Below, piece by piece: positions 4,621 through 64,000 of a DNA stretch of 64,000 nucleotides. Under the pieces are notes generated by a model. The model made no database searches and was not told the origin of the DNA. It was given only the letters and a program-made list of their open reading frames with translations. The translations under genes and the position numbers were made by a program. Position 1 is the first letter of the stretch, and every line of letters starts with the position of its first letter. The stretch spans positions 460,161 to 524,160 of the forward strand of contig PUQB01000222.1 of the NCBI GenBank assembly GCA_003024785.1, given 5' to 3'. The DNA is from Selaginella tamariscina (Eukaryota > Streptophyta > Lycopodiopsida > Selaginellales > Selaginellaceae).

Positions 4621-4649
4621 ATCTCACCTGTGTGCACAGCCGCCGCCGC

Positions 4650-6996: not shown

Positions 6997-7159
6997 GTAA
7001 GTATTATAAACAAATTTAAAAATACTTATAAAGATTCACTCTCTTACATTCTCTCTTAAAATTACAATTTAGGGGTTTAGAATGCATTAGGATTATAATA
7101 TATTCCGTTAGGGATTTATCCGTTTAAATATCCTTTTAACTTAATATTCTAGGTTAACC

Positions 7160-8066: not shown

Positions 8067-8212
8067 ATCAGTTGTATTAATCAAACATGAGATATTATCT
8101 CTAAACATAATTATGTATTATTGCATATGCATATTATTAAGTAACCGTAATTCAGATTTCTTAAAATATTGCATAAACAGATATCATAAATAATACAATT
8201 ATTTATGTGCAG

Positions 8213-11321: not shown

Positions 11322-11797
11322 AGCAATTACAAAATTATAAAATATCATATATTTAATATTCATAATTATTATAAACTCTTTAATAATAGTACCAAATTGT
11401 ATACTTAACTATATAAATTTAAAAAATGATATGGAAGATTGACTATATTATTATAGGATTTTATATATATATTATTATTACTACAAATTTTAATTAATAA
11501 TGTTATATTAAATATTAATATTTTAATAACAACATCAATATTTATATAATGTACCTCTTATGCTCTTCCTTAATTGTTATATTAGGCAATATATTATATA
11601 TTTAATACATTCTACTTTTATAATGTTATTAATTTTGTTCAATGAATGCTATAATTTATTAAAGGGTAGAATACAAAATAGAATATTCTAAAGAATATTC
11701 TCTTTTCAAACATATATTCTAAAGAATATTCCTTTAATATTAGAAAATGCTAATTAAATAGCTAAAATTGCTAATTATTAGGAAATGGGACTATAGC

Positions 11798-11824
11798 CAT
11801 GCCCATTTTAGTTACAACTTGCAT
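11798..11824. repeat. Right terminal inverted repeat, copy A
   Basis: The 27 bp ending GTTACAACTTGCAT match, as reverse complement, 25 of 27 bases of the left end of copy C (51716-51742). Directly to the right is LTR sequence. Confidence 0.8.
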
Positions 11825-18020: not shown

Positions 18021-18123
18021 CTGCAAAATAATACACTATGAATACAAATCATATAAAAACGCACACACACTTGTATAAACTCGAATATACAAAAATAATA
18101 CATAGAGAGAAGTAGACGGAATT

Positions 18124-18210
18124 AATTGTCCAAAGCTCACATTTGTGCTAGTGCAAAAGAAAGATAACATTTCGTTTTAGAACCACCACAAATGTGAGCT
18201 CTGGACAGTT
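18124..18210. repeat. Hairpin with 24-nt arms, copy B
   Basis: Arms 18124-18147 and 18187-18210 correspond to the hairpin in A. The left arm has two extra differences from perfect pairing (TTGTCCAAAG in place of CTGTCCGAAG). Confidence 0.7.
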
Positions 18211-18321
18211 TTACATAGATTCCTAACTTTTACTCGAAATATTATGATAAGATGATAAAAGTAAATAAAATGAGATATGCAACTTATATATACTAATACA
18301 CATATATATTCATATGGAAGG

Positions 18322-19503
18322 TGCAGCGGGATTAATCTCGCCACCCCTTCAATGCCTCCTGAAAGAGTGGGCGGGATTAATCTCGCCACCTTTCTGGAGG
18401 CCTTGAACGGGAGTGCGGAATTAATCTTGCCACCCTTCTCGGTCTCAGAGAGAACTGGGCAGGATTTATTTGGCACACCCCTTCAGTAATTCCAGAAAGG
18501 AGGCGGGATTAATCTCGCCCACCATGTAAGGGATGGTTAAATGAATTTCCCCACCCTTCCCAATTCTCTCCATTGGTATGTTGTAAACCTTCTACGTCTT
18601 AGACAGAAACGTTTGGGATTGGTCCGACTCACCAATGGAGAAAAAAGCGAAGGGTGGCGGGATTCATTCCTCCAACAGGCATTGAAGGCTCGGCGGGATT
18701 AATCCCGCCGCCCAGGGCCTTCACTCGGTCCCTATGCGGCGGGATTAATCTCGCCAGACGCCAATTCCCGCTCGAAATCGGGAGGTATTAATCCCGCCGC
18801 CTAGGCCCTTTAGGCAGTCCTTTGGCGGCGGGATTAATCCCGCCCGATTCCGCACAGGGCAGCGGGATTAATCCCGTCGCCTCGGCCCTTCACTTTGGCC
18901 CTAGGCAGCGGGATTAATCCCGCCAGACGCCAATGCCCTGCGCGGAATTGGGTGGGATTAATCCCGCCGCCTAGGCACTTCAGGCAGGCCAATGGCGGCG
19001 GGATAAATCCCGCCCGATTCCGCGCAGGGCATGCGTACGCGGCAGGATTAATCCCGTTGCCCAGGCCCTTCACTCGGGCCTTAGTCGGCGGGATTAATCC
19101 CGCCGAAAGCCAATGCCCTGTGCAAAATCTTGCGGGATTAATCCCGCTGCCTAGGCCCTTCAGGCAGGCCAATGGCGGTGGGATAAATCCCGCCCGATTC
19201 CGCGCAGGGCATGCGTACACGGCGGGATTAATCCCGCCGCCCAGGCCCTTCACTTCGGCCCTAGGCGGCGGGATTAATCCCGTTGGACGCCAATGCCCTG
19301 CGCGGAATCCGGCGGGATTAATCCCGCTGCCTAGGCCCTTCAGGCAGGCCAATGGCGGCGGGATTAATCTCGCCCGATTCCACGCAGGGCATGCGTAGGC
19401 GGCGGGATTAATCCCGCCGCCGAGTGGCTAATTATATAGCAGCAGGATTAATCCCGCCGCTACACACGTCTCACCATATAGCGGCGGGATTAATCCCGCC
19501 GCT
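18322..19503. repeat. Palindrome cluster 1, copy B
   Basis: Same 18-bp palindrome family at about 50-60-bp spacing. A higher-order unit recurs about four times: palindrome, CCTAGGCCCTTCAGGCAGG, palindrome, GATTCCGCGCAGGGCATG. There are more mismatched units (CCCGTT, CCCGCT) than in A or C, which fits an older copy. Confidence 0.95.
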
Positions 19504-20400
19504 ACACACACACACAGATATATATATGTATATGTGTGTGTAGGAGAGTGCGTGTGTGTGCCAGAGATAGTCAAATCAGATAAAATTATACAGATATACA
19601 CACACATATATATATGTATATGTATATGTATATACACGTCTGTGTGCGAGAGATAGATAAATAAATAAAATTATACAGATACTGGTACACATAATATATG
19701 TATGTATACATAGGTATATAATATATTATATATATAATATAATATATATTTATATGTTGTGTGTGTGTGTGTGTATATGTATATCGTGTGTATGCGTGTG
19801 TGAAACAAATAAAATCATACATATAAACAAACACACACACACACATATATATACAGGAGTGTGCGTGTGTGTGCGAGAGATACAATTAACTAATCAATAA
19901 AATTATACACACACACACATATATATAGATAAATAAATAGAATATATATATATATATAATATATATAATATATATATATATATATATGATAGTATATATA
20001 GTAATCGTGGTGTGGTGGGGATGTATATTATATAATATAATATCTTGTTGTGTTTTGTGTGTATGTATACGAGTGTGCGTGTGTGCGAGAGATAGAGATC
20101 TATAGAGAAGAGAGAGAGAGAGGAAGATATATAATATATATATACAGATATATATATATATTTATATATATATATATCTATAGATGTGTGTATCGGCGTT
20201 GTGTGTAAGTGTTGGTGTGGTGTGTGTGTGTGTGTATGTGTTGTGTGTGTGTGTGTATGTATACGAGTGTGCGTGTGTGTGCGAGAGATAGAGATCTAAA
20301 TTATATTATTAAGATACACACATAATAAATATATAGTGAATAAAAATAAATAAATATCACAAATAAACGCAGAGGAGTGGCGTGTGAGAGAGAGAGAGAG
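19504..20400. repeat. TA/TG/CA microsatellite field, copy B
   Basis: Runs of (TA)n, (TG)n and (GA)n with the same GTGCGTGTGTGTGCGAGAGA signature as in A and C, but differently expanded. No gene seen. Confidence 0.85.
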
Positions 20401-20429
20401 ATCTCACCTGTGTGAGAAGAGAAGGAGAT

Positions 20430-21480
20430 TTCGCTGCCGCCCGCCTTACAAACCCTAGGAATATACCAAAACCCTAAAAGGAATAGAATATATATTAACC
20501 CTAATCGAATATTCCTTTTAAGAATATACTTAAACCCTAAAAAGAATAAACTATAGATTCGCCCTAAAGAAATATTCTTTCATTATATTATCAGCGTGTG
20601 CGTGTGTGTGGGTATCACATACACCCCAAGAAATAAATTATGCAAGGGTTTAACACGTGTATGAGAGTGTTAAAGTTTCACATACAGCGATACATATATA
20701 CACACATAGTATATACATAGACATACATACATATTAGTATATATTAATATTAGAGAGACAGAGTACAGGATCATGTATGGTGTGTATGTATGAGAGAAGA
20801 GTGACAATACATATTATGGATCATGCATGGTGTGTATGTTTGAGAGAAGAGAGACAGTACATATTTACATGGATCATGCATGGTGTGTATGTATGAGAGA
20901 AGAGTGAGAGTGTTAACAAATTAAATTCATACACATTGGATATATTAGTACACACATATACATACACACGTGTATACACACAGACATACATACATATTAC
21001 ATGTGTAAATTCAATGTAGGGTTTAGGGTTTAGGGTTAGGATGGATCATGCATGGTGTTTATGTATGAGAGGAGTGAGTGTTATACACAGATATACATTA
21101 TACATATTACATAATATTGTAACATCAGTACATATTATGGATCATGCATGGTGTGTATGTATGAGAGAAGAGACAGGCTACATATTATGGATCATGATCA
21201 TGCATGGTGTGTATGTATGAGAGAAGGGATTATGCATGGTGACACTGTGTATGTATGAGAGAAGAGATAGAGTGTTAACAAATGAAAATCGTACACATTG
21301 CATATATTATATTAGTACACATATATACATACACACGTGTATACACACAGACATACATATATATTACATGTGTAAATTCAATGTGTTACATACACACACA
21401 CTGAGTACATATAGATCATACATGCGTTGAACATGATGTTTTTCAATAAAGAAGCAACATATAATTTCTCAAGTTTGGTT
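20430..21480. repeat. AAACCCTAA boxes, telomere-type run and GATCATGCATGG repeats, copy B
   Basis: Counterpart of 4650-5580: AAACCCTAA boxes at about 20452-20540, a short TTTAGGG run at about 21017-21035, and about six units containing GGATCATGCATGGTGTGTATG followed by GAGAGAAGAG. Confidence 0.8.
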
Positions 21481-21544
21481 TAGGGCAATGTGCATGTGTG
21501 TGCATATGTGTCTCTGTAAGTGCTTCTAATGCGTGTGCACATGT

Positions 21545-22200
21545 ATATATAAATTTATGATTGTGTTTATATATAATATGTGCAAAACAAACATCGAATA
21601 ATTAAGAAAATAATATTAATATACACACTATGAACATATTTTAAATTATACATAATAATATATGATTTTATCTAATATATAGCCATATATAGTTTTAATA
21701 ATATATATTAATTTAATATTGATAATAAGGTTTAACACTAGAATATTCTTGAAATAATAACAAATTAATTGAGAAAATCCCATTAATATATACAAATGTA
21801 GAATAATTACTGAGATAATTAAGAATAAGACTAATTTAATTATGATAATCATGTTTAATATTGGAATATTCTTTGAATATTAAGAAAATAACAAAGAATA
21901 TCCCATTAATAGTAGGAAATGTAAATTAATTACTCGAGTAATTAAGAAAATAATAATATAAACAGACTATGAATATATTTTAAATGATACATAATAATAT
22001 ATCAATTTATTTATTGTATTAGTGTATATATATATATAATATAAACTTAATAATATATACTTGAATATTAAGAATGTAGAATAATTACAAAAATTTCGTA
22101 ATATTAAACAGCTTGAAGCACTTGAATGACATTAAATGCAATTTTAAAACACTCATTGGAATTGGAGAGTATATATGTCAGACTGTCGGTTATTTGTTTC
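21545..22200. other. AT-rich element-internal spacer, copy B
   Basis: Homologous to 5760-6750 of A but shorter. Only one arm (about 21628-21710) of the AT-rich inverted duplication is present. No coding signal is seen. Confidence 0.6.
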
Positions 22201-22289
22201 AACTCATCTTAAATTTTCTTTTCTGTTATTTCAAAAATTTTAATTTCTGACATAAGTATTATCAGTCTGACATGTAAATTTGAAAATAC

Positions 22290-22457
22290 ATTTAATTTCC
22301 CACTCAAATTCAGATCTGGTTCTTTCTCCGGCAAGGGTTTCTTCATTTTCACTCTTCAGATTTTCTTTTTTCTTCTTAGTGATCAGCTCAGGAGCGACAT
22401 TAAATTGGGTGCGCTATTGTTTATAGGAAAGCACGGCGCCTTCAGTGCTGTTTACAA
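22290..22457 (+). promoter_or_regulatory. Putative 5' exon of the transposase gene with splice donor, copy B
   Basis: Conserved counterpart of 6800-6996, ending TTTACAA|GTAAGTATT at 22457. It differs from A and C by small indels that change the translation, which suggests the exon may be untranslated leader. Confidence 0.4.
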
Positions 22458-22624
22458 GTAAGTATTATAAACAAATTTAGATATATTTATAAAGATTCAC
22501 TCTCTTACATTCTCTCTTAAATTTTAGAATTTAGGGATTTAGGAATGCATTAGGATTACAATATATTCTGTTAGGGATTTATCCCGTTTAAATATACTTT
22601 TAACTTAGTATTCTCGGTTAGCCG

Positions 22625-23438
22625 GGGCGGCGGGATTAATCCGGCCATTTTTTTTCGCCTCTTTGAAGAGGTGGCGGGATTAATCCCGCCACCATCTCTT
22701 TCATAGCTATGGCAGAATTAGTTCGGGCAATGCTTCTCCGCCTCTTAAAAAGAGCGGCGAGATTAATCCCGCCGATAACTCTCTCAACTGATAATGATTT
22801 ACTTGAATTTATTAGAAAGAGTTGTCGGCGGGATTAATCTCTTTTAGGATTTAATCTCGCCACTACTTCCCTGTTTTAAATATTTGTGGGCATTCATTCC
22901 CGAATCTCTTTGAAATCATAGTTTCGGAGAGAGTTGTGGGCGGGATTAATCCCCCGCTTATTCCCCGTCGTCAGAGTTGTGGGCGGGATTAATCCCGCCG
23001 CCTATTCTCCGTCGTCAGTGTTGTGGGCGGGATTAATCCCGCCCTCTTCCTCGTCGGAGGAATTTGCGGCGGGATTAATCCCGCCGACTCTCACAGACGA
23101 GGAAGATCCGCGGGATTAATCCCGCCGGTACTTCCTAGTCGGAGGGAGCCCGCGGCGGGATTAATCCCGCCTACTTCCTCGTCGGAGGGAGCCCGCGGCG
23201 GGATTAATCCCGCCGCTACTTCCTCGTCGGAGGGAGTCGCGGCGGGATTAATCCCGCCGGTACTTCTCGTCTGAGGGAGCCCGCGGCGGGATTAATCCCG
23301 CCGCCTCTCTCCGACGGGGTAGAGTCGGCGGCGGGATTAATCCCGCCGACTCTCTCCGATGGGGTAGAGTCGGCGGCGGGATTAATCCCGCCGACTCACT
23401 CTGAAGGGGTAGAGTCTGCGGCGGGATTAATCCCGCCC
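22625..23438. repeat. Palindrome cluster 2, copy B
   Basis: About sixteen palindrome units. Spacers such as CTTCCTCGTCGGAGGGAGCC and GACTCTCTCCGATGGGGTAG alternate. The unit count and order differ from A and C, so the cluster has turned over since the copies separated. Confidence 0.95.
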
Positions 23439-23582
23439 ATCAGTTATATTAATAAAATGAGATATTATTTTATATATAATTATGTATTATTGCACATGCA
23501 TATTATTAAGCAACTGCAGTTATGATTTCTTACAAATATTGCATAAACAGATATCATAAATAACACAATTATTTATGTGCAG

Positions 23583-26500
23583 GACAATATGTATAATACT
23601 GGAGATAAAGTATGTCTTCTTCGGAACAACGAGATAGTTGGCACTGGAACTGTGGAAGTTCGAGATGATAATGCATCATGTCACAATATTGCCCAAGGAT
23701 CTTGTGTGTACGTATGGGTGAACACCATTTTCAAGCATGTTGAGGTTCCTGGAATGGAATTTGAGGAGGGTTCTCCTGTATTGTGGAATTTGGATGAAGT
23801 CAAGGCTGACACAGAATATACAGAGTCACAAACAAACAGTAGCACGAGTTTTCCAGATGATGGCTTGCCTGCTGTGATGGATGAGGTGATTCTCTTTCTT
23901 CATGAGATTGAGGTTGGGAGAGGCATCATCACAGCTATAAATCCAATGGAAGCAGTGTCAGAAGAGAAACTAGGGTCCGACTTCGTGGGTGTAGTTGTGA
24001 CAGAGGTTTCACCTAATGGCACTTTGCATCCTGGATCCCTCGTGAGGTGGCGAACATCTGAATTAAGACGGCAAGATGGTTCAACATATTCTGGGTTGGA
24101 TTTCAATAATAACAACCCGGAAGAACAACTCATATTTGAAGAGGTTCCTTGCATTGGTCCTATTATAAGAAAAAGGCGATTCATGGGTTGCAGATCTTCC
24201 CCTACATGTTTCAGCAAGAGGATGAAGATGGATCCTACATCTTCCGAAAGTGTTACGAGCATTTCCACGATTGACTGCTGCAAGAAGAAGTGTTGTCAGA
24301 TGGCAGACCGGAATGAAATTACCCAATGTAGACATGTCTTTCGTACGCTCACCCAAAAGCAAAGGCATGAGTTTGTATATGCTGCACTAACTGGGTGTAT
24401 TGATGGAATGGCTTCGGACACAGGTTATCAGAGTACATCCATGGTATTTAATAAGGTGGCCATCTGCTTCAAAGCTTGGTACAGTATATATGGGATCCCA
24501 AAGACCACGTTCTACCGTCGGAGGGATGAGTGGTTAGATGGAGCGCGAACCTCAGTACATGGGAACACTGGCTTGGTCAAAACCCGCTCTCACATTATGG
24601 CAGCCATAGAGATACTCAAGGCTTTTGTGGAAGCAAATGCAGACAGGATGCCTCACAAATGCCGAACCACAAATGCAGGGGTCAGGGAAAATCTCAAGGT
24701 TTTGCCTTCGATCTACACTCAATTGAAGCTGTGTGAACATGTGAACAAGTGCCTCAGCTTGATGGGGCTGCAAGCAATCTGCACTGGTACCTTCAACAAC
24801 ATATGGAATACTCATTTTAAGGATGTGGAGATTGCAAAACACTCTAGCTTTTCCAAGTGTGACACTTGTACATCATTGAAGGCTGCAGAGGCTTGTGCAA
24901 AAACCTTGGTGGAGATCACTGCCATTCAAAAGAAGATGGAGGCCCACATGATTGCGCAACAAACTTGCCGGTCTCAGTACTATGCACACCGCATGCTTTC
25001 TGTGTCACCCCATCAGAGTACCTGTGCTTGATCCATGACAAGATGGATCATTCAAAGACCAGCATTCCAAAGCTCGTTGCAACACCAAAGTGCCTTGGAA
25101 ATGTCATGAAACTTCCGATTTCATTGACAGGTGTGTAACACATGGACACGGTTGTGAATCATATGGACACTTTTCACTTCCACATTGGTCTAGCGACTCC
25201 AATTTCACTATTGGGTCGTTGGCCATGTGTTTCAGAAACCTTGAAGCCCACTCACAGACAAGTCCTATCGGTGATCTCAAAGTGAAGAAACAACACCTTC
25301 AACCTTTACATAATGCTCTCATGAACACGTCTGCACTTGAGGCTACTTGGGAATATGAGAGGCATTGTCAGCAACCTGCACAAAAAAAGATGGCCCTGTT
25401 GAGAGTTCAGGTTCAGTGGAGGGATCTAGCTCAAATAGTGTACATGTGTCCTCAACATCAAATAAGCTTCCTCGTCATTTGCTTTTACAGATGGATAATT
25501 GTGCAGGCGAGAACAAAAATAGGTAAATCATTTTACTTAAGGGTTTCTCAAGCTCATACTTACTTTTATTTTCTAGATATGTGCTAGCATACTTGTCAAT
25601 GCTTGTTGCCAAAGGTGTGTTTGAAACAATCACGCTCAGTTTTCTTATGGTTGGTCACACTCATGAAGATATTGATGCGTTCTTCAGCAAGGTCTCCAAC
25701 TCTACAAAAAGGACAAGTGCACTTACCTTACCGCATATGATGAATCTTTTTGAAAATTGCATCTCCAAAAAAAGTTGTGCTTTGCTTGTGACTGAGGTGC
25801 CAGACTTCAAAAAATTTCTCAAGGAGTATATAAAAGAGGGGAGTGATTCTTTAGTTGGTCACCTTGTGCCGCTACAATTCTTTTTCTCCATACGAGATGG
25901 TATACCTATTATGCAGTACAAGTTACGGCCATCAGAGCAGGAGTGGTTACCGAAAGAGGGGTTAATGCTCTTCAAAAGTGGAGAGAATGGAAAGCCACTT
26001 CTCCCAGAAGGACAACCAGACCCTATTCCATTGAGTGCCCAGCTCAAGGAACAAGAGGTTATTATTGATGGCATCAAAAAATATGTGGCATGGGTTCAAA
26101 AATCGATGCCAAAGAATTCTGATAAGGCAACTGGTTACTCAGAACTATATAAGCATGTGGTTGACTATTGGGAGACTGTTGTTCGAGAGTTGGAAGGGCC
26201 TACTGTCACAAGTACAGAATTGCAACACCCTTTTTGGCCTAAAACAAGGTGGCGAGAGGAGATTGAAATGACATCACTGAGCACAGACGACATAGAAGCC
26301 AGTAGTGATGTGGAAGTGCAAACCCCACACTTTGTTGGACAAAGGAACCAAAAACCTAAAGCATACTTTGATTGCTGCAGGATCTTCAAAAACTAATGAT
26401 GGTTCTCATTACTCCAGATGCGTCATATAATCAGCCTATTTGGATGGGTCAAATTATCGACACACCTGAAGTAATCACAAAAAATAGTATTGTTAAGGTT

Positions 26501-26704
26501 GCATGGTTCAAACCACAAAAAAGGCGACACGAGAAGGAGAGCGAAAGATATAATGGATGCCTAGAGAAAACATGGTCTCCCAATCAAAAAGACCCAGCAT
26601 GTTTTATAAATGTTAAATCCATTCGATATGGGTGGATGTCAAGAAGCGTTGATAAAGTCACGATTAACAAAACTGCAAGGGAATGTATGTTTTCTGAAGC
26701 TTAA
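23583..26704 (+). CDS. DUF7869-type transposase-like gene, copy B (nearly complete)
   Basis: ATG at 23589 follows the acceptor TTATGTGCAG. The first exon is open for 480 codons: TNP1-like module 1 (about residues 8-75), module 2 (about 100-165), CCKKKCC (about 235), the KAWYSIYGIPKTTFYRR segment (about 305), HGNT, then FSKCDTC (about 430). Downstream come IHDKMDHSKT, MDNCAGENKNR and, after a 54-bp intron (25523-25576), MVGHTHEDIDAFFS; together these fit a D/D/E RNase H-like catalytic core. The C-terminal 110 codons (ITPDASYNQPIWMGQI…) resemble a small BAH/Tudor-like fold. Compared with A there are one-base losses near 25010 and 25135, and a frame change near 26390. It therefore appears lightly damaged, or affected by assembly indels. 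The role is inferred from position, motifs and family; I know DUF7869 proteins only from memory. Confidence 0.75.
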
Positions 26705-27182
26705 AGCAATTACAAAATTATAAAATATCATATATTTAATATTCATAATTATTATAAACTCTTTAATAATAGTACCAAATTGTTTACTTAACTATATAAA
26801 TTTAAAAAATGATATGGAAGATTGACTATATTATTATAGGATTTTATATATATTATTACTACTACAAATTTTTAATTAATAATGTTATATTTAAATATTA
26901 ATATTTTAATAACAACATCAATATTTATATAATGTACCTCTTATGCTCTTCCTTAATTGTTATATTAGGCAATATATTATATAATTTAATACCTTCTACT
27001 TTTATAATGTTATTAATTTTTGTTCAATGAATGCTATAATTTATTAAAGGGTAGAATACAAAATAGAATATTCTAAAGAATATTCTATTTTCAAACATAT
27101 ATTCTAAAGAATATTCCTTTAATATTAGAAAATGCTAATTAAATAGCTAAAATTGCTAATTATTAGGAAATGGGACTATAGC

Positions 27183-27209
27183 CATGCCTATTTTAGTTAC
27201 AACTTGCAT
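27183..27209. repeat. Right terminal inverted repeat, copy B
   Basis: Same 27-bp end as copy A with one difference (CCTATTTTAG for CCCATTTTAG). The flank TAAACACCCG is unrelated to the flanks of A and C and so marks the element border. Confidence 0.8.
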
Positions 27210-51715: not shown

Positions 51716-51742
51716 ATGCACGTTGTAACTAAAGTGGGCATG
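51716..51742. repeat. Left terminal inverted repeat, copy C
   Basis: 27 bp, starting ATGCACGTTGTAACTAAA, pairing with 25 of 27 bases at the right end of A and 24 of 27 at that of B. Similarity stops outside it. Confidence 0.8.
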
Positions 51743-52004
51743 ATACGTGAAAATGGGAATATAAAATAAATTACTAATTAATACTTAAGTTTTAATTATT
51801 AATTAATCATTTAATTAATATGTAATTAAGCCTTAAATATTAATTAATTAATTAATTAATCCTTCAATAACCTTACTTAGTAAGGAATATTCCTAAAATA
51901 TCTTAGAATATTCATATTATTCTAAAAATAGTTTACAATAATGAAGAAATACTATCAAACATAATTACAAATGAAATCATTTTCTTATCAACATGTTAAT
52001 TTTT

Positions 52005-53380
52005 TTATAAATACTTTCTTTCTATCATACAAAGAAATCTTTTCATTTTGTCTAAATCATCACTCTCCGGATTAATCAAATCATTTTGGTCAATATCTTG
52101 ATGTTGTTGCCACCACTTAACACTCTCACGAATGCAATTGGGAGTTGCCATCCTTGTTAATACATAAGATGTGATAGAGAAGGTCTGCATAAAGGCTCAT
52201 CTAAAAACTGACGTTCCTTAAGAATAATATTATAAAGCGCCCGGTTGCTATCCTTCATTTTATAAAATTCAATATCACGAGAAAGAAAAGCTTCAGGAAA
52301 TGTATGATACGGTGGATACTGCTCACAAAAATTTTCGAGATTCTTCTTTCTGAGGCACGTATCCAAGTAGTTCACTAGCTCATCCATGATATCGATATCA
52401 GAATATGGATCGAAAGTGATTGGATGAATACAAGCAATGTTTTGGTTGAGCATAGCCTTCTGAGGAGAGTCGTCTACTACTAAGATATGTGCATTCTTCG
52501 TTATCCTTAAGCGACTGATCTCCCCATGAGTCCCAATTATTCTTTCATTCTTGAAGAAGTATGGCTTGCTTTCCTTTCTATATTGTGAAATTCGAGAGGT
52601 TTATAACACATTCGCTGGTCAAAAATCCAATCTTTACGAATCACCTCTTCTGCAACACTACAATGTTTCTTAAGTAAACTCAACAGCGGTGTTAAGTTAT
52701 GAATCTGCATGCATGACCAAATCCCCACAAGCGCACCCATCTCCTTAAGCTTTTGAAAGAGACGATCCAACCCTGGACGAAAAATAATATCATATCGAAA
52801 TTTACCATGACAAGGAATGAAATCTCCTTGTTTGATTTCTGTTTTTCTATCCTCGGGCCTTTGTCGATGAAGCAGAACACCATTGACATCCAACAACACA
52901 ATATGGCCATGAGTAACGTGAGATAGCGTTGCCTCTTGAATACTTTGCAAATCACTTGTTTGCTCCCTTTCACATTTATCCGTTGCCACTATTTCGTTGC
53001 CTATCCCTTCATCATTTAATTGTACATCATCCTTACAAGATTCAGATATTGCATGCGCTGAAGAAATTGATTTCGGAACTGAAGCCAATAAAAATGATGA
53101 TGCAAAAACTGAAGTGGCCCCCATGGTAACGATGTTTTGAGCTGCATTATTATCCATTTCCTGCATGAACTCTGTCATTCTGACATGTGGCACAAAAAAT
53201 TGTCGCCAAACCCCTCTCTTACCTCATGGCAATGCTGAAAATCCATGTTCTCAATTATTTCATTACATCTGCAAAATGATAATTAGCTGACCTTAAAATT
53301 ATCAAGGTATATTATTTACCTTGTTAATGTGTGACCCATGTTTGAACTAAAAGCTTCATTAATCCTTGAGAATTTATTTT
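52005..53380 (-). CDS. HAD/FCP1-like phosphatase domain, probably the C-terminal part of the ParB/methyltransferase-like protein
   Basis: Minus strand: LLDVNGVLL (HAD motif I; FCP1 family usually LDLDxT), FRPGLDRLFQKLKEM, VGIWSCMQIHNLTPLL (motif II region), WIFDQRMCYK, then HILVVDDSP (motif III/IV) and YLDTCLRKKNL. This fits an NLI/FCP1-type HAD fold, a family that usually removes phosphate from proteins. The second motif-I acid is Asn here, so activity is doubtful. Exons 53320-53380 and 53223-53268, then one up to 53169, are joined by introns of about 51-53 bp. A further 101-bp intron (53381-53481) would join them in frame to the upstream gene. A one-base frame change lies near 52560; the stop is at 52157, and an open stretch to 52005 may be a last exon. 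The alternative is a separate gene starting at the Met near 53169. Confidence 0.6.
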
Positions 53381-53449
53381 CTGTACAAATATAAAAGAAA
53401 TATACAAAAATGCCTTATGTTACACTCATTTACAACTATTCATCACTTA

Positions 53450-56400
53450 TCAATTCATTATCAATTCTTCTTCGCTATTACCTTCTGAATGAGGCGAAGA
53501 AGGTCTAAGCCGCTTGTGAGATGGTTCAAGATCTTCTGCATCTTCTATTGATGTTTCCATGGGTCCTGGAGTGTGCGAATGTTCTGTACTCCTCGAGATA
53601 ACTTCCGGTCTAATATCTGATTGATGTTCGTTCTCAGACTCCGAGATTGAACCAGATTCACCTTCAGAGCTATCGCACTTATCTGGAGGGAACTTTCTCA
53701 AATACGCCTTTATGGAATCGTTGGGGTACTCAGTTGAGACCCAATCTATCCACTTGTTCAGGTCCTCAACCATGGTCTTATCCTTCTCAACGGCAAACAC
53801 ACATGTATGCCGAAGGTAACACTCCTTCAAGACGGACCCCCTAGTGCAGTAGTCAAAAACCCACGCATCACTGTGAGGACCCCTGATCAAGTTGACGATG
53901 CTCCGTGCCGCTTGACTTGTAATGTTTGGATAACGTACATTGCCGAATACGTCACTCATACCTATCGGTGTATCGGATGGAGGTTCAGGGCCGTTGGAGT
54001 GCAAACAGATGCCTGGCCAGTCATTTGGAAGCTTGAAATTGTTTGGCGCATTCCTAACAACCAAGTGAACAACAGTATCAATGCACTTGGGATTAGCATC
54101 GTTCATATAAAATCCTGTCCAACGATGTCTATTCTTCTTGGCGAAGGCGAAGGCAAAAGTATCGGTGACATGAGCAAGAATCAAGAAATAAATACCTGAA
54201 AAAGTAGGTATCAGTGAAGAGCGCAAGCATGAATTCAATAATAAATACCTTCTATGTATATGCTTGCACGGCTAAGTTTCTCCACCAGATCCTCTAGTGC
54301 CCTATCTGTCGAAAGATTTTTTGACACCCGCCGATCCATCACGAACAATTGAAACGGTTTCCTACAAGCAGTGATGTTACCCCATAAAGTCTCCGAATCT
54401 AACAACAAACATCTGTAGGGCTTGTCGTGATTCGTAGCATCCTCCTTTATAAGGTTCAATTCGGTTCTCCGCTGCTGAAGGACTGCCATAAGAGAAGGCG
54501 TCATCCCAATGTTCTCCTTTTTGGCGTTGGCGTGCAATAGATTCTTGCCTAGATCTTCCGATTGGTTCACCCATTCGACAAGCATATCATCGTTCGTCAC
54601 ATGCAAATATTTGCTAACCTCTTCATATGTTGAAGTCGAGGTCCAACCCAGTTTGTGGCAGTGTATTCCCAACCACTCCTTGAAATGCCTGACCGTCTTC
54701 AACTCCATTGCCTTGAGATGAAAAGGAGAGGTTGGGCTGCTGTTATTGATTTGTAGTTTGCCATCGATCACCAAATCAGCCAAGACTTCCATCTCCTCCA
54801 TCGTTGTTCCATTTAAAGGCTTCAACCATGTGAGCTTGAAATCGTTGTCTACATCCTTTGTAGATTGAACAGACTTAGCCTTCGGCGTCTTACTGGGTTT
54901 CTTTGCAGACTTTTCTGAGGGCTCCCCTTCACTTGTCTGCTTCTTCTTCAGTGTTCCTTTTGAAAAGGATTCCATAATCCCCAACCATTTGGCAAAGATC
55001 CTATCTTCGGGGCAAGAAATCAACATCATCAGAAATGATGTTTCCTTCCCGCCCACCTGGGCAAAATCAACTGCTGCAATTTCTTCAACTCTCTGAGGAA
55101 AAAGACAGATTAATATACCGGCGAGATAAATCCCGCCCAAACAATTTGCTTACCCGGTATTCCGCAGATTGTGTATTCCCTGCGGTAGCTCTTTGTGGTC
55201 GCTGAAGAGATTCCCACACGGCTCGCGTGTGTTTAAACTTCTCCCATATTTTGCTGTTGTAGTGGTTGGTGTCGGCAGCGTCCCATTCCGCCGATAACTT
55301 ATGGTACTGCTCGATTGTGAGATTCGGCTTAGCTAAAAACGCCGATCTTTTTGTCAGCTTCTCACGGGTATGCTCGGAAAGTTTTGTTGCCATCGTTCCT
55401 TTGTTGTGTTCTTCGAGAAGTCGTTGGGCTGCCGTTATTGTGTGCTGGCCACTAATGATGTAGTACTTGATAGATCTTTTATTCTCCGTCTGAATCTTCA
55501 TGAGTTGTTCTGGTGTTGTGATCCAGACTTTGTCAGCACCCTTCCTTCTTTCATAGTATGGACACAAAACAGCATTATGTGGAACGGTATAAGAATTGTC
55601 GTCCTTCATCTTCTCCATGAGCTCAGCTACACGTTCCTGGTTGAGTGGCCTGTAATTGAAGTTTGGGTTGACGCTGCAATATTTAACCCTACAAGGATAA
55701 ATCTTATCATCCAACATCATTTCCTTGTGACTTATTGCAGCATGAGATGCCACAGGTGCAGCTGACAAAACGATTGATGATTTTCTTTTGCGATCCGAAT
55801 CAACATGTGTGATCCCCGACTGCAGCTGTTCTAGTGTTCTCGGCACACTGCTCCAGCTCCCGAAGCTTCCTAAGCAAATTGAACGTGATCTGTAGAGAAC
55901 CTGAGACCGAGCCACCTTCTCAATCTCCCTTATGATGTCGCTGTGTTCTTCTTCAATGTCAAGAGGGAAGATTGCTCCACTTGCTGATTTTCTGTATTGT
56001 GAAACAATATCTCCTGACAATACACCTACTCGATGAGTCTGAAGATCTTCGAAGTAGACATCCAGATGGATCCCCTCCATAGATGGGCTTTCGTTGAGTT
56101 GAAGAAGAACTCCAAGGTCAACATCATTAGTGAACACGTGAACGTCATTATCCACAAGTCGACAAAACCACCCGAGATTAATGTTGTAACTGACGACCTC
56201 TGGATCCGAGAACGTGACATTGGATGGAACAAGGCATATCTGTCGAGCATCGTCCAATCTGGGTTCGCAGCCTGCTTTCGGGTGCTTGACTAGCGAATCA
56301 ACTTTCCATTGTTTTGCTTGTCCATGAGATGTGACAGAGGTTAATTTGACAGCAGCCATGGTTGCTCCAATGCGCTTCCCATTTATCTTAAAATATGGCC

Positions 56401-56594
56401 AAGTTGATTCCAGAATCCCCCTGCCCATCTCTTCTCCTGCTCTTGACTTTAATGTCACCTCAATTCCACATCTGAATACAAAAATGATTAGTTCAAGTAT
56501 CCGAGTATAACAGATTTTATTTTAATTCTTACCCAGAATTTGACGACGACTCCATACTAATGACTCGATCTCCTTGTTTGATCAAATCGTCCTT
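53450..56594 (-). CDS. ParB-like / DNA-methyltransferase-like protein gene (best copy)
   Basis: Exons on the minus strand: 56533-56594, 55154-56471, 54249-55092 and 53450-54195. All joins are in frame with GT-AG introns of 53-61 bp, giving about 990 residues. The ParB/Srx-fold-like domain is at about 275-380: CSVNPNFNYRPLNQERVAEL, then YYIISGQHTITAAQRLL in place of the usual Y-x-I-x-G-x-x-R-x-x-A. A basic KKPSKTPK linker lies near 530. From about 690 to 900 the order is that of N4/N6-adenine/cytosine methyltransferases: RCLLLD, then YPNITSQAARSIVNLIRG (like the usual HPTQKP…LI), then FDYCTRGSVL and CVFAVEKDK (like DPFAGSGT and IGIExD). The catalytic D/S-PP-Y/W motif is not evident. ParB-methyltransferase fusions are common in phages and bacterial mobile elements. 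The C-terminus is acidic (EGESGSISESENE). A further upstream exon is expected, because 56594 is preceded by an acceptor. Confidence 0.7.
55120..55137. promoter_or_regulatory. Solitary degenerate palindrome inside an intron
   Basis: GGCGAGATAAATCCCGCC lies in the 61-bp intron 55093-55153 of the ParB-like gene. The same intron carries it in A (295-312) and B (16551-16568). Confidence 0.7.
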
Positions 56595-56697
56595 CTGCAA
56601 AATAATACACTATAAATATAAATTATATAAAAACGCACACACACTTGTATAAACCCGAATATACAAAAATAATACACAGAGAGAAGTAGACGTAATT

Positions 56698-56784
56698 AAC
56701 TGTCCGAAGCTCACATTTGTGTTAGTGCAAAAGAAAGATAACATTTCGTTTTAGAACCACCACAAATGTGAGCTCTGGACAGTT
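56698..56784. repeat. Hairpin with 24-nt arms, copy C
   Basis: Arms 56698-56721 and 56761-56784 with a 39-nt loop, as in copy A. It lies about 100 bp upstream of the first recognised exon of the minus-strand gene. Confidence 0.75.
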
Positions 56785-56892
56785 TTACATAGATTCCTAG
56801 CTTTTACTCGAAATAATATGAAGATGATAAAAGTAAATAAAATGAGATATGCAACTTATATATACTAATACACATATATATTCACATGGAAG

Positions 56893-58437
56893 GTGCGGCG
56901 GGATTAATCTCGCCACCCCTTCAATGCCTCCTGAAAGAGTGGGCGGGATTAATCTCGCCACCTTTCTGGAGGCCTTGAACGGGAGTGCGGAATTAATCTT
57001 GCCACCCTTCTCGGTCTCAGAGAGAACTGGGCAGGATTTATTTCTCACACCCCTTCAGTGACTCCAGAAAGGAGGCGGGATTAATCTCGCCCACCATGTA
57101 AGGGATGGTTAAATGAATCTCGCCACCCTTCCCAGTCCCCTCCATTGGTATGTTGTAAACCTTCTACGTCTTAGACAGAAACGTTTGGGATTGGTCCAAC
57201 TCACCAATGGAGGAAAAAGGGAAGGGTGGCGAGATTCATTTCTCCAACAGGCATTGAAGACTCGGCGGGATTAATCCCGCCGCCCAGGGCCTTCACTCGT
57301 CCCTATGCGGCGGGATTAATCCCGCCGGACGCCAATTCCCTGCGCGGAATCGGGCGGGATTAATCCCGCCGCCTAGGCACTTCAGGCAGGCCAATGGCGG
57401 CGGGATAATCCCGCCCGATTCGCAGGGCATTGGCGTCGGCGGGATTAATCCCGCCTCCCAGGCCCTTCACTCGGGCCTTAGTCGGCGGGATTAATCCCGC
57501 CGAACGCCAATGCCCTGTGCGAAATCTTGCGGGATTAATCCCGCCGCCTAGGCCCTTCAGGCAGGCCAATGGCGGCGGGATAAATCCCGCCCGATTCCGC
57601 GCAGGGCATGCGTACGCGGCGGGATTAATCCCGCCCACCATGTAAGGGATGGTGAAATTAATCCCACCACCCTTCTCGGTTCCCTCCATTGGTATTTTGT
57701 AAACCTTCTCCGTCTCAGACAGAGTTAGTCGGGATTGATTCAACATACCAATGGGGTAATGAAGGTTCGGAGATTAATCTCGCCACCGGGTAATGAAGGT
57801 TCGGAGGCTAATCCCGCCGCCCTCTCGTAAATCATGCGCTCACACATATATATTGGCTGCGGCATTTTTGAACAGGGATGGGTGGGGGCGGGATTAATCC
57901 CGCCGCCCAGGGAATTCACGCAGGACATGAACGGCGGGATTAATCCCGCCGCCCTCCGCGAAGGGCATGAGCGTGGGGCCGGATAATCCCGCCGTTCATG
58001 TCCTGCGTGAATTCCCTGGGCGGCGGGATTAATCCCGCCGCTCTACGACAAACCGAAGAGCGGCGGGATTAATCCTGCCGCCCATTCCCTGTAAATGCCC
58101 TCGGAATCCGGCGGGATTAATCCCGCCCATTAGAACCTTCACACAGGCCATTGCCGGCGAGATAAATCCCGCCGCATTCCGCGCAGGGCATGGATGAGCG
58201 GCGGGATTAATCCCGCCGCCGAGGCCCCTCACGCAGGCTATGGGCGGCGGGATTAATCCCGCCGCTCTTCGGTTTGTCGTAGAGCGGCGGGATTAATCCC
58301 GCCGCCCATAGCCTGCGTGAAGGGCCTCGGCGGCGGGATTAATCCCGCCGCTCACCCATGCCTGAAGGGCCTCGGCGGCGGGATTAATCCCGCCGCCATG
58401 GCCCCAACTATATAGCGGCGGGATTAATCCCGCCGCT
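56893..58437. repeat. Palindrome cluster 1, copy C
   Basis: Same family and general order as A, with an extra inverted block at about 58200-58400. There GAGGCC…GCAGGCTATGGGCGG and its reverse complement flank a unit containing CTCTTCGGTTTGTCGTAGAG, so the cluster also forms a palindrome at a scale of about 170 bp. Confidence 0.95.
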
Positions 58438-58449
58438 CGAGGGGCTTAG

Positions 58450-59123
58450 CGAGATAAAAACACACACATATATATGTGTGTGTGTGTATATATATGTATG
58501 TATGTATGTATGTATAGGAGTGTACGTGTGTGTGCAAGAGATAGATAAATAAATAAACTTATACAGTACTGGTACACCTAATATATGTGTGTACATAGGT
58601 ATATATATGTGTGTATATGTATATCGTGTGTATGCGTGTGAGCGAAACAAATAAAATCATACAGATAAACAAACACACACACACACATATATATATACAC
58701 AGGAGTGTGCGTGTGTGTGCAAAGATAAAACTAATAAATAAATAAAATTATACAGATAAACACACACATATATATGTGTGTATATAGATATATAATCTAT
58801 AGAGAAAGAGAGAGTCTGTGAATATATAAGCATATATATAAACTAGTGTTGTATGTATGTATATATGTATATAGGTATATATATATGTGTATATGTATAT
58901 TGTGTGTATGCGTGTGTGAGCGAAACAAATAAAATCATACAGATAAACAAACACACACACACACACATATACATACACAGGAGTGTGCGTGTGTGTGCGA
59001 GAGATAAAACTAATAAATAAATAAAATTATACAGATAAACACACATATATATATGTGTGTATATTATGAATATATAAGCATATATATAAACTAGTGTTGT
59101 ATACTATTTGTTAATATGCATTG

Positions 59124-59178
<55 letters not shown>

Positions 59179-59286
59179 GTGTGTGTGTGTGTGTGTGTGT
59201 AAAGCAGTGCGCGTGTGTGTGGGAGAGATAGATCAATAAAAAAAAATTTACAGATACTGGTACACATATATATATATATATATATA

Positions 59287-59332
<46 letters not shown>

Positions 59333-59590
59333 GCAAGATCAATAAAAAAAATTTACAGATACTGGTACACATAATATATGTATGTATATATGTATATAGG
59401 TATATATATATATATATGTGTATATGTATATCGTGTGTATGCGTGTGTGAGCGAAACAAATAAATCATACAGACACATATACATACACAGGAGTGTGCGT
59501 GTGTGTGCGAGAGATAAAACTAAGAAAAAAAATTATACGCACACTCCTATACATATATACATACATACACACACACACACACACAGATCT
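58450..59590. repeat. TA/TG/CA microsatellite field, copy C
   Basis: Collinear with 3540-4620 of copy A. (TA)n and (TG)n tracts are longer here (59126-59200, 59268-59330), as expected of microsatellite drift after transposition. Confidence 0.85.
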
Positions 59591-59619
59591 CACCTGTGTG
59601 CACAGCCGCCGCCGCCGAT

Positions 59620-60480
59620 TTCACAGCCGCCGCCTCTTGAAACCCTAAGAATATACCTAAACCCTAAAGGAATTAAATATATATATCAACCCTAATAGAA
59701 TATTCCTTCTGAGAATATACTTAAACCCTAAAAAGAATAAAATATAGATTCGCCCTAAACGAATATTCTTTCATTATATTATTAGCGCGTGCGTGTGTGT
59801 GGTGTATCACATACACCTCAAAAATATAAATCATGCAGGGATTTAACATGTGTGTGTCCATGAGAGTGTTAAAGTTTCATGTGTACACATTGCATATATT
59901 AATACACATAATATATACATACACACGTGTATACACACAGACATACACACATATTACATGGGTTTAGGGTTTAGGGTTTAGGGTTTTGGATTTAGGATGG
60001 ATCATGCATGGTGTGTATGTATGAGAGAAGAGAGAGTGTTGAAAAATTATTTTTGTACACATTGCATATATTAGTACACATATATACTTACACATATTAT
60101 ACACAGATATACATACATAGTATATGAGAGAAGAGAGACAGTACATATTAATATGGATCATGCATGGTGTGTATTATACACACAGACATACATACATATT
60201 AGTACATAATATTAGAGAGACCGAGTACATATTATAGATCATGCATGGTGTGTATGTTTGAGAGAAGAGAGACAGTACATATTAACATGGATCATGCATG
60301 GTGTGTATGTATGAGAGAAGACAGAAAGTACACATATATACATACAGAGTACACATATATACATGCACACGTGTATACACACAGACATACATACATATTA
60401 CATGAGTAAATTCATTGTGTTACATATTAGGGTTTAGGGTTTAGGGTTTAGGTTTAGGGGGTTTAGGGTTTGCTCCCAAC
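59620..60480. repeat. AAACCCTAA boxes, telomere-type repeats and GATCATGCATGG repeats, copy C
   Basis: Counterpart of 4650-5580. TTTAGGG runs lie at about 59960-59985 and 60427-60470; the second is longer than in A and includes imperfect units. Confidence 0.8.
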
Positions 60481-60739
60481 AAGCTTAATATAAATATTAC
60501 ACATGTAAATTCAATGTGTTACATATACACAGATTGAGTACATATATCATACATGCGTTGAACATGATGTTTTCAATAAAGAAGCAACATATTTCTTCAG
60601 TTTGGTTTAGGGTTGTGCATGTGTGTGCATATGTGTTTTTGTAAGTTCTTGTAATGCGTGTGTAAATTTATGATTGTGTTTATATATGTGTGCAAAACAA
60701 ACATCGAATAATTAAGAAAATAAAATTAATAAACACACT

Positions 60740-61138
60740 AGGAACATATTTTAAATTATACATAATAATATATGATTTTATCTAATATATAGCCATATAT
60801 AGTTTTAATAATATATATTAATTTAATATTGATAAAAAGGTTTAACATTGAAATATTCTTGAAATAATAAGAAATTAATTGAGAAAATCCCATTAATATA
60901 TACAAATGTAAATTAAGTACTCAAATAATTAACTAAATTAATTATCATAATCATGTTTAATATTGGAATATTCTTGGAATAATAAGAAAATAATAAAGAA
61001 TATCCCATTAATATAAAGAAGATTAATTACTCAAGTAATTAAGGAAATGATATTAATATATATATTATTAAAACTATATATGACTATATATTAGATAAAA
61101 TGATGTATTATTATGTATAATTTAAAATATGTTCATAG
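60740..61138. repeat. AT-rich inverted duplication, copy C
   Basis: Arms at about 60740-60823 and 61052-61138, the same structure as at 5839-6238 in A. The surrounding 60.5-61.65 kb is non-coding. Confidence 0.75.
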
Positions 61139-61703
61139 TGTGTATTAATTTAATATTGATAATAAGGTTTAACACATGAATATTCTTGAAATAATAACAA
61201 ATTAATTGAGAAAATCCCATTAATATATACAAATGTAGAATAATTACTGCAATAATTAAGAACAAGACTAATTTAATTATGATAATCAGGTTTAATATTA
61301 GAATATTCTTCAAATATTAATAAAATATTAAAGAATATCCCATTGATACTAGGAAATGAAAACTAAATACTCGAGTAATTAAGAAAATAATAATAATAAA
61401 CAGACTATGAATATATTTTAAATGATACATAATAATATATCAATTTATTTATTGTATAAGTATATATTAATATATATATATAATATAAATATACTTGAAT
61501 ACTAAGAATGTAGAATATAGTCTAAAATTTCGTAATATTAAACAGCTTGAATCACTTGAATAACATTAAATGCAATTTTAAAATACTCATTGGAACTGGA
61601 GAGTATATATGTCAGAGTGTCGGATATTTGTGTCAACTCATCTTAAATTTTATTTTCTGTTCTTTTTAAAAAATTTGAATTTCTGACATATGTATTGTCG
61701 GTC

Positions 61704-61900
61704 TGACATATAAATTTGAAAATGCATTTAATTTCCCACTCAAATTCAGATCTGGTTCTTTCTCCGGCAAGGGTTTCTTCATTTCTGTATTTTTCACTCT
61801 TTAGATCTTCTTTTTTCTTCATAGTGATCATCTCAGGAGCGAGATTAAATTGGGTGCTATTCTTTATAGGAAAGCACGGCGCCTTCAGTGCTGTTTACAA
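61704..61900 (+). promoter_or_regulatory. Putative 5' exon of the transposase gene with splice donor, copy C
   Basis: Nearly identical to 6800-6996. The donor TTTACAA|GTAAGTATT is at 61900/61901 and the next good acceptor is at 63203. Confidence 0.45.
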
Positions 61901-62065
61901 GTAAGTATTATAAACAAATTTAAAAATACTTATTAAGATTCACTCTCTTACATTCTCTCTTAAAATTACAATTTAGGGGTTTAGAAATGCATTAGGATTA
62001 TAATATATTCCGTTAGGGATTTATCACGTTTAAATATCCTTTTAACTTAATATTCTAGGTTAACC

Positions 62066-63057
62066 GGGGCGGCGGGATTAATCCGGCCATTTCTTTTTCG
62101 CCTCTTTGAAGAAGTGGCGGGATTAATCCCGCCACCATCTCCCGGGCAATGCTTCTCCGCCACTGAAAAAGAGTGGCGGGATTAATCCCGTCGATAACCT
62201 TCTCAACTGATGAAGAGTTACCAGAATTTATTAGAAAGAGTTGTCGGCGGATTAATCCCGCCAACCATTTTAGGAGGCAGGGAAGGGGTGGCGGGATTAA
62301 TCTCGCCACCACTTCCTGTTTTAAAGATTTGGGGACAGGATTTATCCCGAGATCTCTTTGAAATCATAGTTTTGGAGAGAGTTATGTGCGGGTTTAATCC
62401 CGCCACCCATTCCCCGTCGTAAGAATTGTGGGCGGGATTAATCCCGCCTTGGACTCCCTCCGACAAGGAAGAGCCGGCGGGATTAATCCCGCCGCCTCTT
62501 CCTCCGACGAGGAAGGGAGTCCGGCGGGATTAATCCCGCCGACTCTCTCCGGCGAGGATGAGTCGGCGGGATTAATCCCGCCGGACTCCCTTCCTCGTCG
62601 GAGAGAGTCGGCGGGATTAATCCCGCCGGACTCCCCCCGAGGAGGAAGAGGCGGCGGGATTAATCCCGCCGGCTCTTCCTTGTCGGAGGGAGTCCAAGGC
62701 GGGATTAATCCCGCCGACTCTCTCCGAAGGGGTTGAGTCGGCGGCGGGATTAATCCCGCCGACTCTCTCCGAGGGAGTCGGCGGGATTAATCCCGCCGAC
62801 TCTCTCGGAGAGAGTCGGCGGGATTAATCCCGCCGGACTCCCCCCGAGGAGGAAGAGGCGGCGGGATTAATCCCGCCGGCTCTTCCTTGTCGGAGGGAGT
62901 CCAAGGCGGGATTAATCCCGCCGACTCTCTCCGAAGGGGTTGAGTCGGCGGCGGGATTAATCCCGCCGACTCTCTCCGAAGGGGTTGAGTCGCGGCGGGA
63001 TTAATCCCGCCGACCGTTCCTCGTCGGAGGGATTCGTGGCGGGATTAATCCCGCCCA
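62066..63057. repeat. Palindrome cluster 2, copy C
   Basis: About twenty units. Centres from about 62440 onward are 38-47 bp apart. Compared with A it has an extra block around 62750-62830 (GACTCTCTCCGAGGGAGTC, GACTCTCTCGGAGAGAGTC), where the spacers themselves are almost perfect palindromes. Confidence 0.95.
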
Positions 63058-63203
63058 TCAGTTGTATTAATCAAACATGAGATATTATCTCTAAACATAA
63101 TTATGTATTATTGCATATGCATATTATTAAGTAACCGTAATTCAGATTTCTTAAAAATATTGCATAAACAGATATCATAAATAATACAATTATTTATGTG
63201 CAG

Positions 63204-64000
63204 GACAATATGTTTAATACTGGAGATAAAGTATGTCTTCTTCGGAACAACGAGATAGTTGGCATGGAACTGTGGAAGTTCGAGATAATAATGCATCATG
63301 CACAATATTTCCCAAGGATCTTGTGTGTACGTATGGGTGAACACCATTTTCAAGCATGTTGAGGTTCTGGGAATGGAATTTGAGGAGGGTTCTCCTATAT
63401 TGTGGAATTTGGATGAAGTCAAGGCTGACACAAAATATGCAGAGTCACAAACAAATAGTAGCACGAGTTTACCAGATGATGGCTTGCCTGCTGTGATGGA
63501 TGAGGTGATTCTCTTTCTTCGTGAGATTGAAGTCGGAAGAGGCATCATCACAGCTATAAATCCAATGGAAGCAGTGTCAGAAGAGAAACTAGGGTCCGAC
63601 TTCGTGGGTGTAGTTGTGACAGAGGTTTCACCTAATGGCACATTGTATCCTGGATCCCTCGTGAGGTGGCGAACATCTGAATTAAGACGGCAAGATGGTT
63701 CAACATATTCTGGGTTGGATTTCAATAATAACAACCCGGAAGAACAACTCATATTTGAAGAGGTTCCTTGCATTGGTCCTATTGTAAGAAAAAGGCGATT
63801 CATGGGTTGTAGATCTTCCCCTGCAAGTTTCAGCAAGAGGGTAAAGATGGATCCTACATCTTCCGAAAGTGTTACGAGCATTTCCACGATTGACTGTTGC
63901 AAGAAGAAGTGTTGTCAGATGGCAGACCGGAATGAAATTACCCAATGTAGACATGTCTTTCGTATGCTCACCCAAAAGCAAAGGCATGAGTTTGTATATG
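63204..64000 (+). CDS. DUF7869-type transposase-like gene, copy C (5' part, cut by window end)
   Basis: ATG at 63210 after the acceptor GTGCAG. Both TNP1-like modules and the CCKKKCC cluster are present up to the window end. Relative to A it lacks single bases near 63264 and 63301, so the first 30 codons are out of frame with the rest. From about 63330 the frame is the same as in A. Confidence 0.7.

What the first reader, a model, noticed from the sequence alone, without database searches (positions are those of the whole stretch)
51716..64000. Unrecognised ~15-kb plant DNA transposon pairing a DUF7869-type transposase with a ParB/methyltransferase-like gene
Three collinear copies share terminal inverted repeats, two divergent intron-bearing genes and two palindrome clusters. 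Seen: the copies, the ends and the motifs. Known: ParB-methyltransferase fusions are typical of phages and bacterial mobile elements, and DUF7869 proteins are widespread in eukaryote repeats. Inferred: the family is an autonomous transposon with an epigenetic or DNA-binding accessory protein. I do not know of a described superfamily with this set.
Basis: partly seen in the sequence, partly recalled or inferred. Interest (0 to 1): 0.9.

Follow-up and report, generated by a model that had tools for sequence, protein, structure and literature searches.

The report
Three-gene DNA transposon with palindrome arrays
A 15-kilobase cut-and-paste jumping gene, present in many nearly identical copies in a plant-like genome, carries a transposase plus two helper genes and two dense arrays of one 18-letter palindrome that look like docking sites for a control protein.

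Summary
Copy C runs from 51,716 to window coordinate 66,831 (15,116 bp) between 26-bp inverted repeats ATGCA(C/A)GTTGTAACTAAA(G/A)TGGGCAT. Five full-length copies (C among them) have the same anatomy and 14.8-15.1 kb length; 6 of 13 copies with both ends read have an exact 4-bp target duplication (control: 5 of 156 mismatched end pairs). One copy outside the window (contig C861) has open transposase and accessory frames. The DUF7869 protein is a DDE/D transposase by conserved acids and predicted topology. The 'ParB/methyltransferase' label is not confirmed: no profile, homologue or usable structure supports it. Between the divergent genes lie two arrays of GGCGGGATTAATCCCGCC (37-45 sites per full copy, about 45-bp phase); cores diverge at least two-fold less than spacers in 5 of 6 comparisons. 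Best reading: an autonomous, recently active transposon with a self-recognition system, analogous to VANC motif arrays of Arabidopsis VANDAL elements; binding and function are inferred, not shown. New variant of a known kind.

The parts
51716..64000 (.). Element copy C; continues outside the window to coordinate 66,831 (15,116 bp in all)
51716..51741 (+). Left terminal inverted repeat of copy C
11799..11824 (-). Right terminal inverted repeat of copy A
27184..27209 (-). Right terminal inverted repeat of copy B (one mismatch in the 20-bp core)
52160..53223 (-). Third gene: NLI/FCP-type (NIF, PF03031) phosphatase-like; one unresolved change of reading frame near 52,513-52,540
   Evidence: Pfam E 6.9e-9; region present in all five full copies; dN/dS 0.38, 0.39 and 0.57 in three comparisons
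53450..56594 (-).
   Evidence: dN/dS 0.33 and 0.43 in exon 2
55120..55137 (.). Single palindrome inside the intron between exons 2 and 3 of the accessory gene, also in A (295) and B (16551)
56696..56790 (-). Long hairpin in the leader of the accessory gene
   Evidence: MFE z-score -8.4 for 56690-56800, kept in other copies and a relic
56897..58434 (.). Palindrome array 1 (23 sites in copy C)
58435..62070 (.). Variable spacer with microsatellites and TTTAGGG runs
62071..63055 (.). Palindrome array 2 (21 sites in copy C)
63210..64000 (+). Start of the DUF7869 transposase gene of copy C, with frame lesions
1..11824 (.). Element copy A (left part off the window; accessory and transposase genes broken)
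16192..27209 (.). Element copy B (left part missing; accessory and transposase genes broken)
23589..27209 (+). Transposase gene region of copy B with DUF7869 domain (PF25273)
   Evidence: E 5.9e-27
8219..11824 (+). Transposase gene region of copy A with DUF7869 domain
   Evidence: E 2.9e-27

Best explanation
This is a recently active, autonomous cut-and-paste DNA transposon. SHOWN by sequence: 26-bp inverted ends, a 4-bp target duplication, a DDE/D-type transposase gene, an accessory gene and a phosphatase-like gene, each with dN/dS below 1, in many near-identical copies. INFERRED: the DUF7869 protein cuts and pastes the element at its ends; the two arrays of phased 18-bp palindromes, set upstream of the two divergent genes, are clustered binding sites for an element-encoded protein, most likely the accessory protein, which brings itself to the element's own non-coding DNA and keeps both promoters active (anti-silencing in the manner of VANC) and/or assembles the transposition complex. 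The phosphatase, if active, may help transcription; that step is a guess.
Confidence: 0.6

Rival explanations
1. The palindrome arrays are bound by the transposase itself, as internal recognition sites that gather many transposase molecules; the accessory protein has another role.
For: The arrays lie upstream of the transposase gene as well as of the accessory gene; the transposase relative has Tudor/KOW-like modules at its N-terminus and a BAH/chromodomain-like (also MazF-like) match at its C-terminus, so it has parts that could contact chromatin or DNA.
Against: The arrays are 3.8-5.3 kb from the ends in the five full copies, unlike subterminal sites; the terminal repeats do not contain the palindrome.
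Confidence: 0.25
2. The accessory protein is a real ParB-methyltransferase fusion that writes DNA methylation on the palindromes.
For: By eye: PNFNYRPLNQERVAELMEKMK...YYIISGQHTITAAQRLL resembles the ParB/Srx pattern, and AWVFDYCTRGSVLKECYLRHTCVFAVEKD resembles the SAM-binding motif of N4/N6 methylases (patterns recalled, from no call). Palindromes are usual methylase targets (recalled).
Against: No profile match, no homologue, no signal against YbdM. The position where I would expect the catalytic DPPY reads DRRV.
Confidence: 0.1
3. The arrays are passive tandem repeats that grew by slippage, with no bound protein.
For: Array sizes vary between full copies (20-25 and 13-21 sites; C658 contains N) and the spacer between the arrays is rich in simple repeats. 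In array 1 A-C cores and spacers do not differ significantly.
Against: Flanks of the sites within an array are only 30-40% alike while cores are 87-96% alike (cores picked by resemblance); in 5 of 6 comparisons cores differ at least two-fold less than spacers; 64 of 117 intervals are 44-46 bp.
Confidence: 0.1
4. The arrays are sites for a host transcription factor that times transcription of the element.
For: They lie directly upstream of both divergent genes; half-sites GGCGGGAT resemble E2F-type GC boxes (recalled, not tested).
Against: A host factor would hardly need tens of strict palindromes with a regular phase (argument only). Host genes with such arrays were not looked for, because the genome-wide pattern search did not complete.
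Confidence: 0.12

Closest known systems
VANDAL elements (MULE superfamily) of Arabidopsis with VANC anti-silencing proteins
   Same: A transposase gene plus an accessory gene, and a short motif arrayed at high density in the element's own non-coding DNA, evolving by tandem repeats (PMC5735166, passages).
   Different: Transposase is DUF7869, not MULE; no VANC domain (DUF1985) found by Pfam; motif is an 18-bp palindrome with two CpGs, phased at about 45 bp and placed in two arrays; target duplication 4 bp; an extra phosphatase gene.
DUF7869 transposases in other organisms (19 proteins found, among them Riccia sorocarpa and Mytilus edulis)
   Same: Same transposase family: 25-49% identity, 12 of 19 covering 83% or more of the query part; same aligned acids.
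   Different: No relative of the accessory protein was found in the same database, though genes split by introns would be poorly represented there. Genomic context of these relatives could not be read.
TET/JBP-bearing DNA transposons of fungi (Kyakuja, Dileera, Zisupton, Plavaka, ESTA and others)
   Same: DNA transposons that carry a gene thought to act on silencing (PMC12730594, passages).
   Different: Different transposases, duplications and accessory protein; no dioxygenase domain was found here.
Sola superfamily
   Same: 4-bp target duplication (recalled from Bao et al. 2009, which is not held).
   Different: Relationship could not be tested: no Sola sequence or profile was available.

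Membership tests
DDE/D cut-and-paste DNA transposon | Terminal inverted repeats and a fixed-length target duplication | tested here: met
   26-bp TIRs; exact 4-bp duplication in 6 of 13 copies against 5 of 156 control pairs
DDE/D cut-and-paste DNA transposon | Three conserved catalytic acids in RNase H order | tested here: met
   D484, D637, D677 conserved in 20 of 20; strand/helix order in the model of P0003
DDE/D cut-and-paste DNA transposon | Structural match to solved transposases | tested here: inconclusive
DUF7869 family | PF25273 above the curated cut-off | tested here: met
   94.9 and 96.0 bits, cut-off 26
EnSpm/CACTA and the CMCT group | C(2)C and H(3-4)H motifs between second and last catalytic acids (definition from PMC12730594) | tested here: not met
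   The stretch D637-D677 of the C861 protein has a single cysteine, so no C(2)C (sequence)
Zisupton (KDZ) | 8-bp target duplication | tested here: not met
   4 bp; 8 bp from PMC12730594
Sola | 4-bp duplication (recalled) and Sola transposase homology | not testable with these tools
   Duplication length agrees; no Sola sequence held, source paper not held
VANDAL/VANC system | Accessory protein of the VANC family (DUF1985) | tested here: not met
   No Pfam hit for the 989-residue protein
VANDAL/VANC system | Short motif arrayed densely in the element's non-coding DNA | tested here: met
ParB/Srx domain proteins | Profile match to ParB | tested here: not met
   No ParB hit in Pfam up to E 10 for the segment, NCBIfam none, PHROGs unnamed family at 0.045
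ParB/Srx domain proteins | Fold | tested here: inconclusive
   Model unusable, pLDDT 32; YbdM comparison within the range of shuffles (17.5 against up to 18.3 in 30 shuffles)
N4/N6 DNA methyltransferases | Catalytic DPPY-type motif and SAM motif | tested here: inconclusive
   No Pfam hit; candidate motif reads DRRV in copy C, DQWV in an 81%-identical relic stretch
NLI/FCP-type phosphatases (NIF) | PF03031 above cut-off | tested here: met
   36 bits, cut-off 21.8; the expected catalytic motif reads DVNGV, activity not tested

The most novel reading that the evidence does not exclude
An undescribed class of plant transposon in which a DUF7869 DDE/D transposase is coupled to a self-recognition system: an orphan DNA-binding protein, perhaps built from ParB and dead-methyltransferase parts of bacterial origin, that coats 37-45 phased palindromes upstream of both genes to hold the element open against silencing, helped by a captured CTD-type phosphatase and a leader hairpin that may yield small RNA.
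Probability: 0.15. Interest if true: 0.9.

Novelty: new variant of a known kind. Interest (0 to 1): 0.62.

Why it matters
If the arrays are bound by an element-encoded protein, this would be an anti-silencing or self-recognition system of a different make from VANC, with a far more regular target, and it would make a direct test of how transposons escape plant silencing possible. It also gives an anatomy (ends, 4-bp duplication, open genes, copy set) to the DUF7869 transposases, for which the text searches here found no paper, and a natural case of phased palindromes kept inside fast-changing tandem repeats.

Tried and rejected
ParB/methyltransferase identity: Pfam, PHROGs, NCBIfam, protein database (full length and the ParB region), phage tblastn, viral contigs, PDB sequences, profile comparison with YbdM and an AlphaFold run all gave no support. 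The PDB hits are designed repeat proteins and mean nothing. Viral contigs hold no relative of the transposase piece and no palindrome pair. A target duplication of 2, 3, 5 or 6 bp is not above control. PF26133 (DUF8039) is listed for 8 of 19 relatives in the protein database but was not found by the Pfam scan used here in 4 relatives, 3 of which (P0003, P0005, P0008) carry that listing, so I do not rely on it. First reading of copy A's left end as truncated was withdrawn: the DNA left of the window reads N. Right ends of C801 and C760 were not found; the C801 piece holds 338 N, C760 is unexplained. The fetched stretches for C658 contain 3,227 N in all (counted per locus, overlaps included), so its length, palindrome count and base composition are approximate. 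Genome-wide counts of the terminal repeat and the palindrome, and a genome-wide search with the accessory protein, were asked for and never answered.

Full report
Setting. The window is contig C530:460161-524160 of an unnamed 300.7-Mb assembly. The host was not identified; TTTAGGG runs and a transposase relative in the liverwort Riccia sorocarpa agree with a plant, which I take as likely but untested.

The copies. Self-comparison gives copy A 1-11,824, copy B 16,192-27,209 and copy C 51,716-64,000. A and B share the right end ATGCC(C/T)ATTTTAGTTACAACTTGCAT; C has the left end ATGCACGTTGTAACTAAAGTGGGCAT. The DNA beyond the window supplies C's right end at window coordinate 66,831. Left of copy A the assembly reads N. 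B starts after a sequence that, by eye, also occurs close behind A's right end and looks like a retroelement terminus.

Full elements. Five copies with both ends were read: C1239 15,040, C658 14,924 (with N), C861 14,802, C462 14,828 and C530 (window C) 15,116 bp; all five carry the phosphatase, accessory and transposase regions in the same order. They are not all intact: C1239 and C462 show breaks in the accessory gene, C1239, C658 and C530 in the transposase gene, C658 and C462 in the phosphatase gene. C861 has open transposase and accessory frames. A probe over accessory exon 4 and the phosphatase start gave 40 scored hits of 1,798 first-look candidates; all 40 cover the whole probe, 18 round to 100% identity including the window itself. 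The right end gave 40 scored of 1,722 candidates, 97-100% (one extra short piece). DUF7869 gave 300 matches with 150 candidates scored of 4,249; the eight loci fetched from that search are all of this family, 79-99% identical in their longest piece. Candidates are not copies, so copy number is only bounded from below, and elements lacking the accessory gene were not counted.

Target site. Of 13 copies with both ends read, 6 have an identical 4-bp flank pair (ATGA, TTAT, TCAT, ATAG, ATAT, TTGG); 7 do not (C530C, C658, C462, C710, C971, C958, C607). At 3 and 5 bp 0 of 13 match. Mismatched left/right pairs match at 4 bp in 5 of 156. In C861 a neighbouring repeat unit has the same sequence with ATGA once. 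Copies without a duplication may be recombinants; window copy C is one of them. Ten copies were sampled at both expected ends: left ends were found in 10, right ends in 8, C801 and C760 failing; in C710 (left) and C1170 (right) the end has small changes. These 8 and the five full copies make up the 13.

Accessory gene. Four exons give 989 open codons in C and in C861 (the two proteins are not identical). Exon 2 against B: dS 0.117, dN 0.039; against A: 0.056, 0.024 (Fisher p 2.5e-5 and 0.016). A and B each show 2 stop codons against C in this exon. No database supports ParB or methyltransferase (see Tried and rejected). A weak pairwise match joins its N-terminus (35-71) to the transposase N-terminus (108-144), E 5e-4 in a two-sequence comparison, so both may share a Tudor/KOW-type module. 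An older relic beside the C462 copy keeps this gene in broken form.

Phosphatase gene. PF03031 at E 6.9e-9. Against diverged copies dN/dS is 0.39 and 0.38 (two parts, L043, which has 2 stops in the second) and 0.57 (a copy beside C1239), without a significance test. A change of frame between its halves is seen in copy C and, from the separate matched pieces, in the other full copies; it is unexplained. A further fragment lies outside the element at 50,839-51,041.

Palindromes. The window has 126 sites at up to 3 mismatches, none expected. In the six arrays 123 sites were counted; 64 of 117 intervals are 44-46 bp. The five full copies hold 37-45 sites each, one of them always alone in an intron of the accessory gene (C658 contains N). 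Core against spacer differences are given under Best explanation: cores differ two- to six-fold less, or not at all, in 5 of 6 comparisons; array 1 A-C is the exception. Of the six, four were tested: p 9e-15, 0.002, 5e-6 and 0.26. CpG observed/expected is 1.05-1.09 over the arrays, 0.62-0.70 in array spacers alone, 0.74-0.76 in accessory and phosphatase genes, 0.38-0.39 in the transposase gene and 0.47 and 0.30 in two stretches of neighbouring window. The high array value comes largely from the core, which contains two CpGs; I read it only as no sign of CpG loss in the cores.

Mechanism. What is shown is anatomy, selection and recent spread. That the transposase acts at the ends follows from its family and the target duplication. 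That an element protein binds the arrays is inferred from strict palindromy, phase, placement upstream of both genes and conservation of the cores. VANC21 is the closest working precedent: its motif is arrayed in one orientation at high density in non-coding VANDAL21 DNA and its targets grow by tandem repeats (PMC5735166, passages read). PMC12730594 (passages read) lists other transposons that carry genes acting on silencing. I put the transposon itself at about 0.95, the arrays as sites of an element protein at about 0.6, and anti-silencing as the purpose at about 0.35.

Novelty. Table 2 of the 2015 Repbase paper (PMC4455052, passages read) names no such family, and text searches for DUF7869, PF25273, PF26133 and DUF8039 found no paper. 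Repbase and Dfam themselves were not searchable, so a nameless or differently named entry may exist.

Noticed in passing
window 56696-56790 (-): Leader of the accessory gene folds into a long hairpin of pre-miRNA type (MFE -45 kcal/mol over 111 nt, z -8.4, 0 of 200 shuffles as good); sequence identical in 4 of the 6 other copies read, near-identical in the other two; a diverged relic still folds.
   Followed up: partly
window 59940-60480: Runs of the plant telomere repeat TTTAGGG inside the spacer between the two arrays, in 4 of 5 full copies; the fifth (C658) contains N.
   Followed up: partly
window 13016-15275 and 31108-31569 (-): Open frames that read like retrotransposon gag (zinc knuckles, aspartic protease motif) and integrase core; recognised by eye only.
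   Followed up: no
window 50839-51041: Second, degenerate phosphatase (NIF) fragment just outside the left end of copy C, about 55% identical in protein over 54 residues.
   Followed up: partly
C861, C1239, C658, C462, C530C: Transposase gene is far poorer in CpG (0.38-0.39) than the accessory and phosphatase genes (0.74-0.76) of the same element, as if the latter joined the element later or were methylated less.
   Followed up: no
L013 and L018 (contigs C1041, C75): Two copies on different contigs share nearly the same left flank, so they are probably one locus assembled twice or a segmental duplicate.
   Followed up: no
C462 right flank: This copy is inserted in or joined to an older, broken relative that has palindrome-like sites and the leader hairpin.
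   Followed up: partly
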